A DNA stretch of 7,337 nucleotides from an uncultured Collinsella sp. Lineage in GTDB: Bacteria > Actinomycetota > Coriobacteriia > Coriobacteriales > Coriobacteriaceae. Under the pieces are notes generated by a model that worked only from the letters and a program-made list of their open reading frames with translations, was not told the origin of the DNA and did no database searches. Location: NCBI GenBank assembly GCA_934630385.1, contig CAKTWE010000081.1, positions 1-7,337 of the forward strand, given 5' to 3'. Made by a program: the position numbers and the translations under genes. This document shows, piece after piece, positions 25 to 7,337 of this stretch (position 1 is the first letter of the stretch; every line of letters begins with the position of its first letter).

Positions 25-990
25 ATGTGCACGAGCATTCGATTTACCGATAATTCTGGCCACATGTATCTGGGCCGCAACCTCGACTGGAGCTTTGACT
101 ACGGCCAACAGGTTCGCGTGATGCCGCGCGGGTTTCACATTCCGTATTCGTTTATCGACGACGCGACAGCGGCACACGCGGTGATCGGTATGTGCATCGA
201 TTACAAGAACTACCCTATGTTCTTCGACTGCGGCAACGATGCGGGCCTCGCCGTGGCGGGTCTCAATTTCCCGGGTTATGCCGAGTATGCCGAGGATCCT
301 GTCGACGGCAAGACCAATATCGCGGCCTATGAGTTTCCCCTGTGGGTGGCAGCGACGTTCTCGACGGTCGACGAGGTCGAGGCTGCGCTGCGCGATACGG
401 TGATTGTCGCCAAATCTGCAGGAGAGGGGCTGGGTGTGTCGCTGCTCCATTGGATTATCGGCGACAGCCAGCGCAGCATCGTGGTCGAGATGATGGCTGA
501 CGGCCTGCATGTATACGACGATCCGGTCGACACCCTTGCCAACCAGCCGACCTTCCCGTGGCACATGGAAAACCTGCGCACCTATATCACTGCCACAAGC
601 GATTTTCCGCAGACGGCGACATGGCGTGGCGCCGAGCTCAAGCCCTATGGCGCGGGTGCCGGCATGCGCGGTATTCCGGGCGATTGCTATTCGCCGAGCC
701 GTTTTGTAAAGGCGGCGTACCTCAATGCCAATTACCCGCAAAAGGAGAGCGAGACCGAAAACGTCGTCCGCATGTTCCGCTCGCTCGAGGGCGTGGTGAT
801 GATTGAGGGGGCGTCCAGGATGGGTGATGGCAAGTTCGAGAAGACTATCTATACCGGATGCTTTAGCGCGCGCACGGGCAATTATTACTACGCGATGTAT
901 GGGGATCCGTCGATTCGCTATGTGAGCCTGATGGATGCCGAGGGTGCGAGCCCCGATAGGCTCGTGACCCCCGAGCCGCGTCGTTCGTAG
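25..990 (+). CDS. bsh: Choloylglycine hydrolase family protein, probable bile salt hydrolase
   Basis: This 321-residue protein is an N-terminal nucleophile hydrolase (peptidase C59) that would cleave the amide bond of glycine- or taurine-conjugated bile acids. The start MCTSIRF gives Cys2 as nucleophile after methionine removal. Other family residues are visible in order: Arg18 and Asp21 in GRNLDWSF, Asn81 in GLNFPGY, Asn173 in LANQPTFPW and Arg226 in SPSRFVKA. Asn at position 81, rather than the Tyr usual in penicillin V acylases, favours bile salt hydrolase. Length is typical, with no signal peptide or membrane segment, so the enzyme should be cytoplasmic. It appears monocistronic at its 3' end, converging on kup across a shared hairpin. 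Penicillin V acylase or N-acyl-homoserine lactone acylase activity cannot be excluded from sequence. Family assignment is very secure; substrate is inferred. Confidence 0.93.
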   Translation: MCTSIRFTDNSGHMYLGRNLDWSFDYGQQVRVMPRGFHIPYSFIDDATAAHAVIGMCIDYKNYPMFFDCGNDAGLAVAGLNFPGYAEYAEDPVDGKTNIAAYEFPLWVAATFSTVDEVEAALRDTVIVAKSAGEGLGVSLLHWIIGDSQRSIVVEMMADGLHVYDDPVDTLANQPTFPWHMENLRTYITATSDFPQTATWRGAELKPYGAGAGMRGIPGDCYSPSRFVKAAYLNANYPQKESETENVVRMFRSLEGVVMIEGASRMGDGKFEKTIYTGCFSARTGNYYYAMYGDPSIRYVSLMDAEGASPDRLVTPEPRRS

Positions 991-1069: not shown

Positions 1070-3319
1070 CTAGAAGTTGGCGTCGTTGAGTTGTTCGCTC
1101 TCGAGGCCGTCGAGCTGTTGCTGTTCGGGCGTATCGGCGACGCTCTCGAGCAACTCAGTGGGGTCGACGTTCATGTCCCTACCGGCCTCGTTGCCGTTGA
1201 CCAGGTCGTCCGAGAAGATGTCGACTTCCATTTCCTCGGCCTCTTCGATCTGAACCTCGAGCGGCACCTGGGTGCGCACGAGCTTAACGGCCGGGCGCAT
1301 GCGGGCAAACAGCGGCACGTACTCGATGATGATGGCCGAGTTCTCTAGACCGTACCAGCGTGCCGGGCTTCCGCAGGCGCGGCGGACGGCGTACTTGATG
1401 GCCATGACGCGGTGGTCATTGCGGTTGATGTCCGTTTCGGGGGCGAGCATCTTGCGCAGCATGCAAAAACGGAAGTCGCCCACGTTGCCGCGGGTCTCGT
1501 AGATGGAGTAGGTGTGATGCTGCGGCGGTAGCTCACCCGATGCCATCAAGTCGCCAACGATCTGGCGCAGGTAGGCATTAACGCGCTGATTGACCTTAAA
1601 GCCCAGGTCCAGACGCACACGGAACAAAAAGTCCGTGCCAAAGGTCTCAACGGAATACTCGTGCGTATAGGGCTCGTCGGTAACGTGCACGTTGATGAAC
1701 CAGTATGCCTTGGCGCGCTTGGGATGCTTGTCCAGGATGGAATAGAGCACGTCGCGGTCGAGCGTGAGCGGATCGGGGCTGTTGGTGAGGAACACCAGAT
1801 TGTCGGCGAGCACGGGGTAGGTCTCGTCGTTGCGCAGACGGTTGAGCTGATCGATGTACTTGGAGACGGACAGCAGGATCGTTTGCGTGCGCTCGATGGC
1901 GGTGCCGCGGCGCCACACATACATAAGGCCAAACAGCAGCGAGGCCAAGAAGATCATGACGTAACCGCCGTCAAAGAACATAGTGAGGCATGAGGCAAAG
2001 AAGCAGAGCTCGATGGCGCCAAAAAGCAGGGCGAAGATGCAGGCGCCCAGCTTGTGCTTGAGAATGCCGGCGATATAGCTCGTCAAAAGCGTCGTGGTCA
2101 TGAGCATGGTCACGGTGATGGCGAGGCCATAGGCGCTTTCCATGCGCTCGGAGTTCTGGAACAGCAGCACGATGAAAATGCAGCCGACCCACATGATGTT
2201 GTTGACGAGCGGAATATAGAGCTGACCCTTGGTGTCGCTGGGGTAGTGGATGCGCAGGTGCGGCATGAGATTGAGACGGGTTGCCTCGGATACCAGCGAG
2301 AACGAGCCGGTGATGAGCGCCTGCGAGGCGATGATGGCCGCCACGGCCGAAAGCACGATGGCAAAGGGGCGCAGGGGCTCGGGGAGCATCATATAGAACG
2401 GGTTGACGATATCCATCGCGAGCATCTGGGGGTTGGAGTTATTGGCGAGCAGCCAAGCGCCTTGACCCAGATAGTTGAGGATAAGGGCCGCCTTAACAAA
2501 CGGCCAGGATGCATAGATGTTGGCCTTGCCCACATGACCCATGTCCGAGTAGAGGGCCTCGGCGCCGGTCGTCGACAGGAAGACAAAGCCGAGCACCATG
2601 ATGCCCGAGTGGTTGATGGGCGAGAACAGGAACATGATGCCGCGAATGGGGTTGAGCGCGCGCAAGATGGACAGGTTGCCGAGCATGTTGAACAGGCCGG
2701 CGCCTGCCAGGAACAGGAACCACAGCGTCATGAGCGGGCCGAACAGCTTGCCGATCGACGAGGTACCGGCGCGCTGCATGGCAAATAGGCCGCAGATAAT
2801 GATGATGGTAATAATGATGACGTTGGTTTGCCCGTCACCCAATAGCGCGTGGCCCCACTCGATGGTGCGCAGGCCCTCAATGGCTGTGGTGACCGTGACG
2901 GCGGGGGTGAGGATGCCGTCGGCAAGCAGTGCCGCACCGCCGATCATGGCGGGGAGAATCAGCCACGGCGCCACCTTGCGTACGAGGCTGAACAGAGCGA
3001 AGATGCCGCCTTCGTTGTGGTTATCGGCCTTCATGGCGATTACCACGTATTTGACCGTGGTCACGAGCGTCATGGTCCAGATGACGAGCGAAAGCGCGCC
3101 CAGAATCATGTCCTCGCTGACGGTGCCGATGCCGCCGTTGTTGGCGACGATTGATTTCATGGTGTACATAGGGCTCGTGCCGATGTCGCCATAGACGACG
3201 CCGAGCGTTACGAGCAGCATGCCAGCGGAGAGGGGAATGGCTCCATGCCCGCCTTGACTACGCTGGTCTTGGGGGCTTACCTCCAGTTTGTTGTGTGCCA
3301 CGTGGACTCCCTTAGACAT
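1070..3319 (-). CDS. kup: Kup/HAK/KT family potassium uptake protein
   Basis: This 749-residue inner-membrane transporter would import potassium by proton symport. The family signature GVVYGDIGTSPMY sits at residues 40-52, NEGGIFAL at 102-109 and TGAEALYSDMGHVGK at 251-265. Hydrophobic segments run from about residue 30 to 468, matching the twelve-helix core. Residues about 470-690 form the soluble cytoplasmic domain (for example SVETFGTDFLFRVRLDLGF). Residues 691-749 form an acidic, Gln/Asn-containing tail with a single basic residue. Residues 1-30 precede the core. E. coli Kup is about 620 residues, so this one is extended mainly at its C-terminus. AGAGG lies four bases before the ATG. It is transcribed on the same strand as the EamA gene but 209 bp downstream, so probably separately. 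Potassium transporters are often controlled by c-di-AMP in Gram-positives, but I see no ydaO-type riboswitch in the leader. Confidence 0.96.
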   Translation of the reverse strand: MSKGVHVAHNKLEVSPQDQRSQGGHGAIPLSAGMLLVTLGVVYGDIGTSPMYTMKSIVANNGGIGTVSEDMILGALSLVIWTMTLVTTVKYVVIAMKADNHNEGGIFALFSLVRKVAPWLILPAMIGGAALLADGILTPAVTVTTAIEGLRTIEWGHALLGDGQTNVIIITIIIICGLFAMQRAGTSSIGKLFGPLMTLWFLFLAGAGLFNMLGNLSILRALNPIRGIMFLFSPINHSGIMVLGFVFLSTTGAEALYSDMGHVGKANIYASWPFVKAALILNYLGQGAWLLANNSNPQMLAMDIVNPFYMMLPEPLRPFAIVLSAVAAIIASQALITGSFSLVSEATRLNLMPHLRIHYPSDTKGQLYIPLVNNIMWVGCIFIVLLFQNSERMESAYGLAITVTMLMTTTLLTSYIAGILKHKLGACIFALLFGAIELCFFASCLTMFFDGGYVMIFLASLLFGLMYVWRRGTAIERTQTILLSVSKYIDQLNRLRNDETYPVLADNLVFLTNSPDPLTLDRDVLYSILDKHPKRAKAYWFINVHVTDEPYTHEYSVETFGTDFLFRVRLDLGFKVNQRVNAYLRQIVGDLMASGELPPQHHTYSIYETRGNVGDFRFCMLRKMLAPETDINRNDHRVMAIKYAVRRACGSPARWYGLENSAIIIEYVPLFARMRPAVKLVRTQVPLEVQIEEAEEMEVDIFSDDLVNGNEAGRDMNVDPTELLESVADTPEQQQLDGLESEQLNDANF

Positions 3320-3424: not shown

Positions 3425-3530
3425 CATGTACGCAGGTAGCATTTCAAAGCAGGGGCATATCCGCTGAATGGCTTGCTGCAATGTGATAACCGCGGACGCG
3501 CCCCTGCTTCAAAACTGAAGAGGGGCTTTT
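3413..3530 (+). ncRNA. Candidate small RNA or short leader transcript
   Basis: A transcript of about 118 bases is bounded by the candidate promoter and an intrinsic terminator. It contains AAGCAGGGGC (3447-3456), perfectly complementary to GCCCCTGCTT (3500-3509). Inside that, TCCGC (3460-3464) pairs with GCGGA (3492-3496). The segment 3500-3510 can pair instead with the downstream terminator arm, so two exclusive folds are possible. It also holds two tiny ORFs, 3426-3467 (13 codons) and 3468-3518 (16 codons), which abut as TGAATG. No known RNA family is recognised. It could also be non-functional, or be read on the minus strand as part of the EamA-kup spacer. Confidence 0.35.
3500..3530 (+). 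terminator. Intrinsic terminator reading on the plus strand
   Basis: GCCCCT plus CTTC (one bulged G at 3506) pairs with GAAG plus AGGGGC around an AAAACT loop, giving a 10-bp G+C-rich stem followed directly by TTTT. On the minus strand the hairpin is followed by GCGTCCGCGG, without a U-tract. It therefore suits plus-strand transcription, although it sits directly against the EamA stop codon and may also help end or stabilise that mRNA. Confidence 0.65.
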
Positions 3531-4440
3531 AAGCACGTGCTACCTGGGCGATGCCGGCCTTGGCGTTTGCGCGTTTGCCGGCGAGTTCGCAAAAAATCGC
3601 GCCGCCGATGATAAGTGCGGCGCCCATCAGGCGGACCGGTGTTATGGCTTCGCCTAAAAGGACGGCGGAGAACACGACGGCCGAAAGCGGCTCGAGGTAG
3701 CCGACAACTGCGACGGTCTGGACGGGCAGCTTGGCGACGGCACTAAAGTAGAGCAGGCAACCGATGCCGGTGTTGACGACGCCGAGCATGACGACGGCGC
3801 GCCAATCAATACCGGCGGCGACGCCGGCGGACAGGAATGAGGGGGCACCCTGCGTGATGAGCGTAAGGATCAGCGCGGTCACAAAGGCGGCGCTCACCTG
3901 GAGCGTGGAGTTCTCGAGGCCTTCGATGTGTGGCGCACCCTTGCTAGCGATGACCATCAGCGCATAGCAAAATGCCGAGGCGATTCCGCAGGCGATACCA
4001 GCAATGGGCATATTGCCGCCTAAACCTTGCGCTGCAATGAGAAAAGCACCGCAAGCAACGGCGATGAAGCCGGCGATTTTGCCGCCGGTCAGCTTTTCGC
4101 CAAAGATGAGTGGGGACAGCGCCATGACAATGATGGGGCCGCAGTAGTACAGCAGCGAGGATACGCCGACGCCGATCGTCTGGTAGGCGCGGAACAGAAA
4201 AATCCAGCTGGCGCCCAGCGCGGCTCCCGAGAGGAGGAGGGCTGCGGCTTCGCGGGGGCGAGATGGCGCCTGCAACTTATGGTGTTGGGTGATGGCGAGG
4301 ATGGTGACAAGCGAGAGTGCGCCCAAAAACGTGCGCAGTAGCACGATATCGGAGCTCGGCAGTGCGATGGCAGCGGCGATGATGCCGTTGGAGCCAAACA
4401 ATAGCAATGCTGCTAAGTACGTAAACAGTCCGTTGTTCAT
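3529..4440 (-). CDS. EamA family (drug/metabolite transporter superfamily) permease
   Basis: This 303-residue protein is almost wholly hydrophobic and fits the ten-helix DMT fold made of two EamA repeats, about residues 5-139 and 147-287. Each repeat ends in the same kind of motif: YYCGPIIVMALSPLIFGEKLT at 98-118 (split here as YYCGPIIVMA then LSPLIFGEKLT) and EPLSAVVFSAVLLGEAIT at 250-267. The tail after residue 288 is short and basic, as expected for a cytoplasmic end. Such carriers usually export amino acids or other small metabolites; the substrate cannot be read from sequence. The ATG at 4440 is preceded by AGAGGGG, about 10 bases upstream, a slightly long spacing. The gene is divergent from the LysR regulator at 4559, which probably controls it. 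Confidence 0.92.
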   Translation of the reverse strand: MNNGLFTYLAALLLFGSNGIIAAAIALPSSDIVLLRTFLGALSLVTILAITQHHKLQAPSRPREAAALLLSGAALGASWIFLFRAYQTIGVGVSSLLYYCGPIIVMALSPLIFGEKLTGGKIAGFIAVACGAFLIAAQGLGGNMPIAGIACGIASAFCYALMVIASKGAPHIEGLENSTLQVSAAFVTALILTLITQGAPSFLSAGVAAGIDWRAVVMLGVVNTGIGCLLYFSAVAKLPVQTVAVVGYLEPLSAVVFSAVLLGEAITPVRLMGAALIIGGAIFCELAGKRANAKAGIAQVARA

Positions 4441-4558: not shown

Positions 4559-5416
4559 GTGGAAACGAATATTCAAAAGATGCAGGTGCTGCTCGAGACC
4601 GTGCGCGCCGGCAGTTTTACGCGCGCCGCCGAGCGGCTGAGCTATTCGCAGTCGGGCGTGAGCCGTATGGTGGCCGATCTCGAGGCCGACTGGGGCTTTA
4701 AAGTGCTTGATCGCAGCCGCGAGGGCGTAGTGCTTTCTGCCGATGGGCGGCAAGTTATGCCGGCGGTCGAGGCGTTATGCGAGGAATTTGTTCGTTTGCA
4801 GCGACGGGTGGATGAGATGCGTGGGCTCATGCGCGGCAAAATCTGCATCGGTACGTTTTCGAGTGTGGCGACCCACGTGCTGCCGCCGGTGATCGCGCGC
4901 TTTCGCGCCGATCACCCGGACGTCGATTATGAGTTGCTGATGGGCGATTACTCAGAGATTGAACAATGGGTGGCAGAGGGCCGCTGCGATCTGGGCTTCA
5001 TCCCGCGTGAGCCACGCGGCGCCGGCATGGCGTCGCGGCCGTTGGTGCAAGACGAGCTGATGGCCGTGGTGCCAGCGGACTCCTCGCTTGCCACCGCGGA
5101 GGTCGTTTCCCTTGCCGATTTGGCCAACGAGCAGTTTATTCTGCTGGAACGCGGTAGCGACGACGAGATTACGCCGCTGTTTCGCCACGCGGGCCTGTCG
5201 GTGCGCTCTAAGCTGTCGACCTGGGATGACTATGCGATTATGGCCATGGTCGAGGACGGCCTGGGCGTGAGCATTCTTCCCGCGCTCATCTTGCGTCGCT
5301 GCCAGTTCGATGTTGCCGTGCGCCCGCTCGAGGGACATCCTCATCGGCAGATCAACGCCATATATCGAACGGCCGATGTTTCGCTTGCTGCTGCTCGTTT
5401 CCTCGAATACCTCTAA
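4559..5416 (+). CDS. LysR family transcriptional regulator
   Basis: This 285-residue protein has the LysR winged helix-turn-helix at residues about 5-62 (core TRAAERLSYSQSGVSRMVAD at 21-40, then LEADWGFKVLDRSREGVVLSADG). A linker helix leads to a periplasmic-binding-type effector domain from about residue 90 (KICIGTFSSVATHVLPPVIARF) to the end. Length is slightly short for the family (usually about 290-310), mostly at the C-terminus, with no sign of truncation. The start is GTG, chosen because GGAGGGG lies four bases upstream and the HTH begins in the usual place. It would act in the cytoplasm as a dimer or tetramer and probably regulates the divergent EamA permease and itself through the T-N11-A dyad between them. 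The effector is unknown; it may be the exported metabolite. Confidence 0.94.
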   Translation: METNIQKMQVLLETVRAGSFTRAAERLSYSQSGVSRMVADLEADWGFKVLDRSREGVVLSADGRQVMPAVEALCEEFVRLQRRVDEMRGLMRGKICIGTFSSVATHVLPPVIARFRADHPDVDYELLMGDYSEIEQWVAEGRCDLGFIPREPRGAGMASRPLVQDELMAVVPADSSLATAEVVSLADLANEQFILLERGSDDEITPLFRHAGLSVRSKLSTWDDYAIMAMVEDGLGVSILPALILRRCQFDVAVRPLEGHPHRQINAIYRTADVSLAAARFLEYL

Positions 5417-5417
5417 T

Positions 5418-5427
5418 CGTGTACACG
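5418..5427. repeat. Perfect 10-bp palindrome after the LysR stop
   Basis: CGTGTACACG begins one base after the LysR stop codon. It is too short and lacks a U-tract, so it is not a terminator. It could be a protein-binding site upstream of the next gene or chance. Confidence 0.3.
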
Positions 5428-5475
5428 TCATTGTTCGCTTTGGGCAAATCTCAGAGTCCGGTACATTTTCTTATG

Positions 5476-5560
5476 AAATTGAACTTTCGAATGAGGTGCC
5501 GCGTTATACTGCTGCCTAAATTGAACCCTGGTTCAATTCGTGTTCTATAAATTGAACTTT
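5476..5560. promoter_or_regulatory. Repeated TTGAAC operator array before the XRE-aminotransferase gene
   Basis: AAATTGAACTTT occurs identically at 5476-5487 and 5549-5560. Between them, 5519-5538 is a perfect palindrome with arms AATTGAACC and GGTTCAATT two bases apart. The AATTGAAC cores start at 5477, 5519 and 5550, which is 42 and 31 bp apart, close to four and three helical turns. The array covers the candidate promoters and ends seven bases before the Shine-Dalgarno. It looks like a cooperative operator, most simply for the XRE domain encoded next to it. Confidence 0.65.
5505..5510 (+). promoter_or_regulatory. Candidate -10 element for the XRE-aminotransferase gene
   Basis: TATACT would start transcription near 5517, at the palindrome's left edge. 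The best -35 is TTGAAC at 5479-5484, itself part of the repeat, but the 20-bp spacing is long. A rival is TATAAA at 5546-5551 with TTGAAC at 5521-5526, spaced 19. Either way the repeats overlap the promoter. Confidence 0.4.
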
Positions 5561-5566
5561 GCCAGC

Positions 5567-5574
5567 AAGGAGGT
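5567..5574 (+). promoter_or_regulatory. Ribosome binding site fixing the GTG start at 5579
   Basis: AAGGAGGT is a near-perfect Shine-Dalgarno, four bases before GTG 5579. The longer in-frame option, GTG at 5540, has no such site and would place coding sequence in the operator palindrome. Confidence 0.85.
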
Positions 5575-5578
5575 TCCT

Positions 5579-7099
5579 GTGGCCCAAGAGACGTTTAGCG
5601 ATCGCCTACGACAGACTATGTCCGATCGCGACGTTCGCCAGTCGGACGTAATCCGCGCATCGGAGATGCTCGGCAAAAAACTCGGCAAGAGTCAGATGAG
5701 CCAATATGTGAGCGGCAAGACGATTCCGCGGCGCGATGTGGCAGAGCTGCTCGCCCGCATTTTGGAGGTCGATGTTACCTGGCTGCTCGCCGGTGGCGCC
5801 GATCAAGGCGAGACATCATCGCCCCGCAACATTTCCAAGCCCGAACCCCATCCCTCAGCTCAAATTCCAAGGAGCACCACCATGCGTACTTTTTCTAAAT
5901 CCACCAAGCTCGATAACGTCCTGTATGACGTGCGCGGTCCCGTCGTTGACGAGGCCGCCCGTATGGAGGACGAGGGCGAGCGTATTCTCAAGCTCAACAT
6001 CGGCAACCCCGCGCCCTTTGGTTTCCGCACGCCCGATGAGGTCATTAAGGATATGCGCCAGCAGCTGCCCGACTGCGAAGGCTATTCCAACTCGCGCGGC
6101 CTGTTCTCTGCACGCAAGGCGATTATGCAGTACTCGCAGATCAAGGGCCTGCCCAATGTTCAGATGGAGCACATCTACACGGGCAACGGCGTGTCCGAAC
6201 TCATTCAGCTTTCGATGAACGCGCTGCTCGACAATGGCGACGAGATTCTGATCCCCAGTCCCGACTATCCGCTCTGGACGGCGTGCGCAACCCTTGCCGG
6301 CGGTCATCCCGTTCACTATCTGTGTGATGAGCAAGCGGATTGGTATCCCGACCTGGAGGATATGGAGTCCAAGATCACGAGCGCGACCAAGGCCCTCGTC
6401 ATCATCAACCCCAACAACCCTACGGGCTCGGTCTATCCGCGCGAGGTGCTCGAGGGCATCGTTGAGATCGCGCGTAGGCACCAGCTCATGATTTTTGCCG
6501 ACGAGATCTACGACCGTCTGTGCATGGACGGCTACGAGCACGTCTCGATTGCCTCGCTTGCTCCCGACCTGCCCTGCGTCACCTTTAGCGGCCTTTCCAA
6601 GTCGCACATGATTGCGGGCTATCGTATTGGCTGGATGGTGCTTTCGGGCAACCAGCGCTGCATGAGCGACTTTATTATGGGCATCAACATGCTCTCGAAC
6701 ATGCGCCTGTGCTCCAACGTGCCGGCTCAGTCGATCGTCCAGACGGCGCTCGGCGGCCATCAGTCTGTTAACAACTATATCCGCCCGGGCGGTCGTGTCT
6801 ACGAGCAGCGCAACTTTGTGTATGAGGCACTCAACAAGATCGACGGCATCTCGGTGGTTAAGCCGCGTGCGGCGTTCTATATCTTCCCCAAGATGGATGT
6901 GAAGAAGTTCAACATCACCGATGACGAGCAGTTTGCCCTCGACCTGCTGCACGAGAAGAAGATTCTCATCACGCGCGGCGGCGGCTTTAACTGGGGCGAG
7001 CCCGACCACTTCCGCATCGTGTACCTGCCGCGCATGGAAGTGCTCAAAGAGTCGCTCGAAGATCTTGCCGACTTCTTTGATCACTACCGCCAGTCGTAG
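5579..7099 (+). CDS. alaA: XRE helix-turn-helix domain fused to AlaA-type alanine aminotransferase
   Basis: From GTG 5579 the product is 506 residues. Residues about 5-73 form an XRE/Cro-C1 type DNA-binding domain (RQSDVIRASEMLGKKLGKSQ, then MSQYVSGKTIPRRDVAELLA and EVDVTWLLAGG). Residues 74-101 form a Ser/Pro-rich linker. From Met102 the rest matches E. coli AlaA from end to end, as recalled: LNIGNPAPFGF, GNGVSELIQLSMNALL, PDYPLWTA, INPNNPTG (276-283), FADEIYDRL, the PLP lysine 341 in SGLSKSHMIAGYRIGW, and the carboxylate-binding Arg479 in DHFRIVYLPR. Counted from Met102 the lysine is residue 240 and the length 405, as in E. coli AlaA. The enzyme part should interconvert pyruvate plus glutamate with alanine plus 2-oxoglutarate. 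The XRE part suggests direct gene control. The gene follows LysR after a 162-bp regulatory spacer and seems to be its own transcription unit. Confidence 0.93.
   Translation: MAQETFSDRLRQTMSDRDVRQSDVIRASEMLGKKLGKSQMSQYVSGKTIPRRDVAELLARILEVDVTWLLAGGADQGETSSPRNISKPEPHPSAQIPRSTTMRTFSKSTKLDNVLYDVRGPVVDEAARMEDEGERILKLNIGNPAPFGFRTPDEVIKDMRQQLPDCEGYSNSRGLFSARKAIMQYSQIKGLPNVQMEHIYTGNGVSELIQLSMNALLDNGDEILIPSPDYPLWTACATLAGGHPVHYLCDEQADWYPDLEDMESKITSATKALVIINPNNPTGSVYPREVLEGIVEIARRHQLMIFADEIYDRLCMDGYEHVSIASLAPDLPCVTFSGLSKSHMIAGYRIGWMVLSGNQRCMSDFIMGINMLSNMRLCSNVPAQSIVQTALGGHQSVNNYIRPGGRVYEQRNFVYEALNKIDGISVVKPRAAFYIFPKMDVKKFNITDDEQFALDLLHEKKILITRGGGFNWGEPDHFRIVYLPRMEVLKESLEDLADFFDHYRQS
5869..5884 (+). promoter_or_regulatory. 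Internal Shine-Dalgarno and ATG start for free-standing aminotransferase
   Basis: AAGGAG at 5869-5874 is seven bases before an in-frame ATG at 5882. This ATG is exactly where free-standing AlaA proteins begin (MRTFSKSTKLDNVLYDVRGP). The same mRNA could therefore yield a 405-residue enzyme without the DNA-binding domain as well as the 506-residue fusion. Relative use is unknown. Confidence 0.6.
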
Positions 7100-7155: not shown

Positions 7156-7337
7156 GCGAGCGAGCCGCATTTGCGCCAAGGTGACGTGAAATGAGAGGGC
7201 GCTGACCTTTTGGTCGCGCCCTCGAAATTGAACGTCAGATTGGCGTGAATGCGGCTCGCGCAGCGTCAGGTAGTCCGCCGTTCGGTTGAACGGCGGAACG
7301 ATATAACGTCACCTTGGTGCAAACGCGGCTCGCTCGC
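7156..7337. repeat. Three-armed inverted-repeat element with nested hairpins
   Basis: Arm L (7156-7187) is the reverse complement of arm R (7306-7337) at 30 of 32 positions, and of arm M (7232-7261) at 25 of 30. L and M flank a hairpin (GAGGGCGC 7195-7202 and GACC 7204-7207, TTTT loop, GGTC and GCGCCCTC 7212-7223). M and R flank another (TCCGCCGTTC 7274-7283, GGTT loop, GAACGGCGGA 7288-7297). L can pair with M to form a hairpin of about 105 bases, or with R to enclose everything. There is no ORF and no U-tract. It may be a dispersed palindromic repeat, a MITE-like element, or an elaborate 3' structure of the aminotransferase mRNA. The right arm matches to the last base of the window, so the element may continue. 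Confidence 0.75.
7195..7223. terminator. Hairpin that may end the aminotransferase transcript
   Basis: This 12-bp G+C-rich stem with one bulged T and a TTTT loop is the first strong hairpin after the stop codon, 96 bp downstream. Neither strand has a U-tract after it (GAAATTG on plus), so intrinsic termination is uncertain. It could instead protect the mRNA end. It forms the tip of the L-M palindrome. Confidence 0.4.

What the first reader, a model, noticed from the sequence alone, without database searches (positions are those of the whole stretch)
5579..7099. XRE DNA-binding domain fused to a complete AlaA alanine aminotransferase
Aminotransferase-regulator fusions of the MocR/GabR type use a GntR winged helix and a fold-I domain that usually acts as a sensor. 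Here a Cro/C1-type HTH is joined by a 28-residue Ser/Pro-rich linker to what looks like a full enzyme, with PLP lysine (341), INPNNPTG and Arg479 intact. This suggests an enzyme that reports alanine, pyruvate or glutamate status directly to DNA. The fusion and motifs are seen in the sequence; the sensing role is inference.
Basis: partly seen in the sequence, partly recalled or inferred. Interest (0 to 1): 0.7.

Follow-up and report, generated by a model that had tools for sequence, protein, structure and literature searches.

The report
Alanine enzyme fused to its repressor
In a Collinsella-like gut bacterium one gene joins a phage-repressor-type DNA-binding head to a complete alanine aminotransferase; a repeated DNA motif in front of it, kept in relatives from two phyla, is likely where the protein shuts down its own gene, and a kept second start signal inside the gene would also make the enzyme without the head.

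Summary
In detail: window 5579-7099 encodes a 506-residue XRE helix-turn-helix, a flexible linker and a complete AlaA-like aminotransferase. It is no artefact: of 246 sampled Coriobacteriia genomes 124 hold a close AlaA, and 116 of those carry the fusion (one across an assembly gap); Lachnospiraceae carry it too. (1) The linker contains an in-frame ATG at AlaA residue 1 (5882) with a Shine-Dalgarno (5869-5874); 78 of 82 representatives keep such an ATG and 71 of those a strong SD, although linker residues are almost unconstrained. The gene likely makes both fusion and free enzyme. (2) The upstream region carries 2-8 TTGAAC sites in 80 of 82 fusions, phased at 10.5 bp; 45 unfused genes have none (38) or one (7). 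The nearest solved HTH, phage TP901-1 CI, binds TGAACT half-sites. By the patterns tried, motif pairs cluster only at this gene. Best reading: an autorepressing 'trigger enzyme' with a second, head-less product. Metabolite sensing is plausible and untested. It is not a MocR/GabR protein (no GntR domain). Transcription, binding and translation were not measured. Novelty: new variant of a known kind.

The parts
5579..7099 (+). XRE-AlaA fusion gene, 506 aa, GTG start
   Evidence: same architecture in 159 of 204 analysed sequences, 157 of them with HTH and AlaA in one open frame, the other two (L039, L158) cut by an assembly gap
5591..5794 (+). XRE (Cro/CI) helix-turn-helix domain, residues 5-72
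   Evidence: Pfam HTH_31/HTH_3; nearest solved sequence phage TP901-1 CI NTD, E 2e-8; five helices predicted, block pLDDT 79-92 for residues 1-70
5687..5713 (+). third helix of the HTH (residues 37-45, KSQMSQYVS), presumed recognition helix
   Evidence: helix 37-45 in the model; K37, S38, S41, Q42, Y43, V44 invariant in the 48 aligned fusions; other representatives vary, e.g. L196, L032; the role is inferred from XRE proteins
5795..5881 (+). flexible linker, residues 73-101
   Evidence: pLDDT under 50 at 74-89 and 91-100; dN/dS about 0.93 versus 0.06 in the HTH and 0.02 in AlaA, 39 near pairs
5869..5874 (+). internal Shine-Dalgarno AAGGAG
5882..5884 (+). internal in-frame ATG (Met102 = AlaA residue 1), predicted second translation start
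   Evidence: ATG kept in 78 of 82 representatives, SD energy <= -5 in 71 of those 78; SD signal peaks at this ATG
5882..7096 (+). AlaA aminotransferase domain, 405 aa, predicted to be made alone as well
   Evidence: 4cvq without a gap, E 2.7e-165; 14 of 16 checked active-site positions invariant in 82 representatives
5924..5935 (+). residues 116-119 (Tyr-Asp-Val-Arg), the AlaA 'plug' over the active site
   Evidence: maps to E. coli Tyr15-Arg18 (PMC4094517, passages); Y116 and R119 82 of 82, position 118 Val 80 and Ile 2
6599..6601 (+). PLP lysine K341 (E. coli Lys240)
7013..7015 (+). substrate-carboxylate arginine R479 (E. coli Arg378)
5479..5484 (+). TTGAAC site 1 (in AAATTGAACTTT)
5521..5526 (+). 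TTGAAC site 2, left half of the palindrome ATTGAACCCTGGTTCAAT
5531..5536 (-). TTGAAC site 3, right half of the palindrome
5552..5557 (+). TTGAAC site 4 (in AAATTGAACTTT)
5505..5510 (+). candidate -10 box TATACT; site 2 begins 16 nt after its first base
   Evidence: read in the sequence; similar spacing in 28 of 40 relatives with an extended -10 match; the generic promoter scan found none at 5400-5900
5567..5573 (+). Shine-Dalgarno AAGGAGG of the full-length protein
   Evidence: read in the sequence

Best explanation
The gene encodes a complete AlaA-type alanine aminotransferase with an XRE DNA-binding domain on its N terminus; the fusion likely binds the TTGAAC array at its own promoter and represses its own transcription, and a conserved internal start would make the enzyme without the DNA-binding domain from the same mRNA. 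Shown by sequence: the fusion, the intact active site, the conserved internal SD plus ATG, the conserved phased TTGAAC array, and its near absence from unfused alaA genes. Inferred: that the HTH binds TTGAAC (supported by the TGAACT half-site of its nearest solved relative, TP901-1 CI); that binding represses (sites lie around a candidate -10 box); that both starts are used; that enzyme dimers carry zero, one or two HTH arms on flexible linkers, so that DNA binding depends on how much enzyme, and which form, is present. Untested: that substrate or PLP binding, acting through the N-terminal arm and plug to which the HTH is tethered, alters DNA binding.
For: Fusion in 116 of the 124 Coriobacteriia genomes that have a close AlaA, 246 searched, one such match per genome; in the five Coriobacteriia genomes looked at beyond that (G001-G004, G008) the next best other aminotransferase has at most 32% identity. 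Internal start: 78 of 82 representatives have an in-frame ATG; 71 of 78 have SD energy <= -5 kcal/mol (median -7.9) versus 18% of 1075 other in-frame ATGs (median -1.9); 37 of 78 are singly beyond synonymous-codon chance. Mean SD energy is -7.8 at the ATG and between +0.7 and -3.1 at shifts of 8 nt or more upstream or 10 nt or more downstream, out to 60 nt. Operators: TTGAAC is the commonest upstream 6-mer, in 81 of 81 representatives other than the window; >=2 sites in 80 of 82, mean 4.3 per 200 nt, shuffled mean 0.18; 45 unfused genes: 38 none, 7 one. Spacing is phased at 10.5 bp, also in 16 loci under 80% identity. TP901-1 CI is the nearest solved HTH; its OL reads AGTTCA...TGAACT (PMC4941734, passages). 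Motif pairs: 31 hits at the fused gene in 15 of 17 genomes, 14 scattered elsewhere. HTH dN/dS about 0.06, linker about 0.93.
Against: No measurement of transcription, binding or translation exists here. At the junction L177, L187 and L198 have neither ATG nor GTG; L190 has GTG with a strong SD. Seven of 78 have weak SD, and the synonymous-codon test is not significant singly in 41 of 78; its combined p ignores relatedness. Two representatives (L028, L121) have a single TTGAAC site. The generic sigma-70 scan finds no promoter at 5400-5900; an extended -10 match was found in only 41 or 40 of 82. The window's own HTH scores lie under the Pfam cut-offs. The model is poor in the AlaA part (pTM 0.54), so no arm geometry is claimed from it. 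14 motif pairs lie elsewhere in 17 genomes against 5 for the reversed control pattern, so further targets are not excluded.
Confidence: 0.7

Rival explanations
1. Single-product trigger enzyme: only the full-length fusion is made and acts as both enzyme and autorepressor; the internal ATG and SD are left over from the unfused ancestor.
For: The ATG stands where unfused alaA genes start; PutA works as enzyme and repressor (PMC8249747, passages).
Against: A leftover SD should decay in a linker with dN/dS about 0.93, yet it is kept across two phyla at a strength at least that of unfused genes (median -7.9 versus -6.9). In 11 of 78 representatives the ATG stands at another codon, and an SD core match accompanies it in all but L029.
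Confidence: 0.17
2. Metabolite-sensing regulator of the MocR type in function: the AlaA domain works chiefly as a sensor of alanine, pyruvate or glutamate and the HTH switches a regulon.
For: The HTH is tethered to the N-terminal arm whose plug reaches into the active site in E. coli AlaA (PMC4094517, passages); GabR changes form on external aldimine formation (PMC6522883, passages).
Against: The checked catalytic residues are kept and it is the only close AlaA in the genomes searched, so catalysis is probably needed; motif pairs cluster only at the gene itself, so no wide regulon shows by the patterns tried. It overlaps with the best explanation: an autorepressor may also sense.
Confidence: 0.1
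3. The HTH is a decayed passenger, a phage-repressor fragment fused by chance, without regulatory function.
For: Weak scores against general HTH models in the window.
Against: HTH dN/dS about 0.06; third-helix residues invariant in the 48 aligned fusions; operator array kept with the HTH, and no site (L169, L179, L195) or one (L043) in four HTH-less genes that the tree places inside the fused clade.
Confidence: 0.03

Closest known systems
E. coli AlaA, glutamate-pyruvate aminotransferase (PDB 4cvq)
   Same: The AlaA part aligns without a gap, 58% identical; active-site residues and plug motif kept.
   Different: 4cvq starts where our residue 102 starts and carries no DNA-binding domain; here the enzyme's start codon lies inside a longer coding frame.
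MocR/GabR family (GntR winged helix plus aminotransferase-like domain)
   Same: DNA-binding head, linker, class-I aminotransferase domain; [quoted passage not shown]
   Different: The head is XRE/Cro-CI rather than GntR; the enzyme part is a full AlaA. No internal start is mentioned in the passages read.
Trigger enzymes PutA, BirA, NadR
   Same: Metabolic enzymes with a DNA-binding domain; PutA binds between putA and putP and represses in the absence of proline (PMC8249747, passages).
   Different: Other enzymes, and for PutA another DNA-binding fold (recalled). No head-less second product is mentioned in the passages read.
Phage TP901-1 CI repressor
   Same: Nearest solved HTH by sequence (E 2e-8); half-site AGTTCA/TGAACT (PMC7250872 and PMC4941734, passages) matches TTGAACT; flexible linker to an oligomerising part.
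   Different: CI is a phage repressor with its own oligomerisation domain; here an enzyme takes that place.

Membership tests
E. coli AlaA-type alanine aminotransferase | Full-length homology to AlaA | tested here: met
   4cvq, residues 3-404 of the AlaA part, no gap, E 2.7e-165
E. coli AlaA-type alanine aminotransferase | Active-site set Tyr15, Arg18, Tyr68, Ser105, Tyr129, Tyr210, Ser239, Lys240, Arg248, Tyr333, Arg378 | tested here: met
   All present in the window, each 82 of 82 in representatives; list from PMC4094517 passages
E. coli AlaA-type alanine aminotransferase | NCBIfam alanine aminotransferase equivalog cut-offs (NF006230, NF006033) | tested here: not met
   341.7 bits against 534, and 137.7 against 647; NF006230 is nevertheless its best model. 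Hence 'AlaA-like' on grounds of 4cvq, not an NCBIfam member
E. coli AlaA-type alanine aminotransferase | Alanine-glutamate transamination activity | not testable with these tools
   needs purified protein
XRE/Cro-CI helix-turn-helix | Five-helix HTH recognised by XRE-type models | tested here: met
   HTH_31/HTH_3 E 8e-5/3e-4, under cut-off in the window; 5 of 6 other fusions reach HTH_3's cut-off; TP901-1 CI match; five helices predicted
MocR/GabR | N-terminal GntR winged helix | tested here: not met
   No GntR model among the Pfam matches listed; the HTH is XRE-type
MocR/GabR | C-terminal class-I aminotransferase-like domain | tested here: met
Trigger enzyme (enzyme with its own DNA-binding domain) | Complete enzyme plus DNA-binding domain in one polypeptide | tested here: met
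Trigger enzyme (enzyme with its own DNA-binding domain) | Regulates transcription | tested here: inconclusive
   Operator-like array in front of its own gene conserved; binding and repression not measured
Gene with an internal in-frame translation start (two products) | In-frame start codon with SD inside the coding frame, kept in relatives | tested here: met
   78 of 82 ATG, 71 of those 78 with strong SD
Gene with an internal in-frame translation start (two products) | Short product seen in cells | not testable with these tools
   needs ribosome profiling, N-terminomics or a blot

The most novel reading that the evidence does not exclude
One gene encodes a self-metering circuit: a catalytically active XRE-AlaA repressor and, from a start conserved across two phyla, its HTH-less twin. 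Mixed oligomers of the two forms bind phased TTGAAC half-sites according to enzyme amount and substrate occupancy, because the HTH hangs on the N-terminal arm whose plug closes over alanine or glutamate. It would be a second, MocR-independent invention of a PLP-enzyme transcription factor, in which the sensor is the working enzyme itself.
Probability: 0.4. Interest if true: 0.8.

Novelty: new variant of a known kind. Interest (0 to 1): 0.66.

Why it matters
Enzymes that also act as repressors are few and usually thought of as one polypeptide doing both jobs. Here one widespread gut-bacterial gene appears to encode an enzyme-repressor and its head-less enzyme, with its target sites readable in the DNA. 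If true, it gives a compact, testable case of an enzyme that sets its own expression by its own concentration or occupancy, a route to a PLP-enzyme transcription factor that does not use the MocR design, and a reason not to annotate these genes as plain aminotransferases, which is how the named records call them.

Tried and rejected
MocR/GabR membership: rejected, no GntR domain. Wide regulon: not supported by three paired-site patterns in 17 genomes; single sites were not surveyed. Operator sites inside the linker: an apparent excess (43 in 10.8 kb against 96 in 95.9 kb of AlaA) is mostly GTTCAA made by the codons of MREFKK at one fixed place, so it is not claimed. Free-standing HTH relatives: 46 proteins found, most on short contigs where a gene is likely cut; not followed one by one. 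Split gene in C. intestinalis (L039): an assembly gap of N, uninformative. Separate HTH gene beside unfused alaA: no tblastn hit in any of 45. Structure prediction gave a good HTH and a poor AlaA part, and the PDB fold search on it adds little beyond 4cvq. Rfam: no match in the window. First dN/dS run was two codons out of register and was replaced; the first operator count misplaced the HTH start of L167 and was repeated. Ten literature searches; in the listings no paper on an XRE-aminotransferase fusion was seen, in a library that lacks most subscription journals. Papers: only passages seen of PMC5320631, PMC7250872, PMC4941734, PMC4094517, PMC8249747, PMC6522883 and PMC9734109.

Full report
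Observation. The frame at 5579-7099 is open from GTG to stop and gives 506 residues. Residues 6-66 match HTH_31 and residues 29-69 HTH_3, both a little under their gathering scores; residues 136-485 match Aminotran_1_2. Residue 102 is Met and from there the protein aligns to E. coli AlaA (4cvq) without a gap, 58% identical, so that our residue number is the E. coli number plus 101. The active-site residues named in the passages read of the AlaA structure paper (PMC4094517) are all present; 14 of 16 checked positions are invariant in 82 representatives, the two others vary Val/Ile and Val/Ala.

The fusion is real and widespread. A protein search with residues 1-101 found 197 proteins in the allowed length range, and 119 of the 120 listed carry the aminotransferase domain. 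The genome scan gave 80 loci: Collinsella, Enorma and other Coriobacteriaceae, and Lachnospiraceae or Clostridiales, with the fusion, and Streptococcus, Desulfovibrio and others without. Of 246 Coriobacteriia genomes 124 have a close AlaA (E <= 1e-60), one match each. I fetched 93 of these places, 30 came with the search, and one (G004) was already held as L023. HTH and AlaA lie in one open frame in 114 of the 123 loci and in L023; one (L158) has an assembly gap in the linker; eight have no HTH. In the five Coriobacteriia genomes whose weaker matches were listed (G001-G004, G008) the next best aminotransferase is at most 32% identical.

An internal start is conserved. All later counts use 82 representatives under 95% AlaA identity, window included, out of 159 sequences labelled fused. 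In 78 an in-frame ATG stands within 14 codons before the AlaA anchor motif; where there were several the one with the best SD was taken. Its SD energy is <= -5 in 71 of 78 (median -7.9), against 18% of 1075 other in-frame ATGs of the same genes (median -1.9; Mann-Whitney p 3e-41). Holding the amino acids and re-drawing synonymous codons, 37 of 78 are at p <= 0.05 (Fisher combined 2.5e-28, which ignores relatedness); 41 are not. The SD signal peaks at the ATG and vanishes within about ten bases on either side. Sixty-seven ATGs stand at one codon and 11 at others; an SD core match accompanies 10 of those 11. The native starts of 44 unfused genes are no stronger (median -6.9). Four representatives have no ATG: L190 has GTG with a strong SD, and L177, L187 and L198 have neither. 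In a set thinned to 16 loci under 80% identity 15 have the ATG and 13 a strong SD. Meanwhile linker residues are nearly free to change (dN/dS 0.93) whereas the HTH (0.06) and AlaA (0.02) are constrained; these are 39 near pairs with the window, not independent.

An operator-like array is conserved. Four TTGAAC sites lie at 5479-5557. Among all 6-mers in the 200 nt upstream, TTGAAC/GTTCAA is the commonest in the fused loci, present in 81 of 81 other than the window. With a corrected start finder 80 of 82 have two or more sites (mean 4.3, range 1-8; L028 and L121 have one); the first run gave 79 of 82, mean 4.2, with 0.18 in dinucleotide shuffles. Of 45 unfused genes 38 have none and seven have one. 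The half-site reads AAATTGAACTT. Distances between sites are phased at 10.5 bp in all four orientation classes (R 0.31-0.55) and in the 16 thinned loci (R 0.385, n 92; 0 of 2000 jittered sets as high), as expected if all sites face one side of the DNA. Of 40 loci with an extended -10 match, 28 have a site 13-18 nt after its first base, against 16% (at most 26%) for random positions near the cluster; in five Bacillota loci the site stands where a -35 box would. The generic promoter scan finds nothing at 5400-5900 in the window.

The HTH fits the motif. The nearest solved sequences are the N-terminal domain of phage TP901-1 CI (E 2e-8). Its OL operator is AGTTCATGAAACGTGAACT (PMC4941734, passages) and a mutated OR half-site reads AGTTCACG (PMC7250872, passages). 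The half-site TGAACT lies within our TTGAACT. This is independent of the alignment of upstream regions, though it is not a binding test.

Targets. Three paired-site patterns in 17 genomes gave 31 hits at the fused gene, in 15 genomes, and 14 elsewhere, no two of them at one place; the reversed control pattern gave 5. One of the 31 lies inside the gene, in the linker (G040). Hence the main target is likely the gene itself; single-site targets were not surveyed.

History. A quick tree of 127 AlaA domains needs five changes between fused and unfused, four forced by well-supported branches; one gain with four losses (L043, L169, L179, L195) is one reading, with supports of 85-92 for the nesting. 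In these four HTH-less genes the array is gone, or one site is left (L043), and translation starts at the ATG homologous to the internal start.

Mechanism. Committed reading: autorepression by the fusion plus a head-less enzyme from the internal start. In E. coli AlaA the first ten residues help form the dimer interface and residues 15-18 reach into the active site (PMC4094517, passages); the HTH here is tethered to that arm, which makes coupling to substrate binding plausible and leaves it untested. Comparison: it works like the trigger enzymes (PMC8249747, passages) and resembles MocR in layout and in its repeated, same-face boxes (PMC5320631, passages), but fails MocR's defining GntR domain.

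Noticed in passing
L079:2821-4272 and L080 (Moraxellaceae): AlaA with another N-terminal addition of about 78 residues that no Pfam model names; 13 proteins share it, all with an aminotransferase domain. Possibly a second, independent N-terminal fusion; its internal ATG has no clear SD.
   Followed up: partly
window 7156-7192, 7227-7259 and 7301-7337: A family of inverted repeats (37 nt arms, 89% complementary) downstream of the gene; two more TTGAAC sites (7228, 7286) lie in it.
   Followed up: no
window 25-990: Choloylglycine (bile salt) hydrolase, above the NCBIfam cut-off.
   Followed up: no
window 1070-3319 (-), 3529-4440 (-), 4559-5416 (+): Kup-type potassium transporter, an EamA transporter and a divergent LysR regulator.
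   Followed up: no
HTH and linker versus AlaA part, window against near relatives: Synonymous divergence is about three times lower in HTH and linker (about 0.1) than in the AlaA part (0.30) in 39 near pairs; constraint on the DNA or recombination could explain it.
   Followed up: no
G040 (L140): Two TTGAAC sites inside the linker just before the internal start.
   Followed up: no
G007 (Blautia sp. An81): Carries both a fused AlaA (72% identity) and an unfused one (70%).
   Followed up: no
L051: A fusion whose AlaA frame ends early, 312 residues after the anchor.
   Followed up: no
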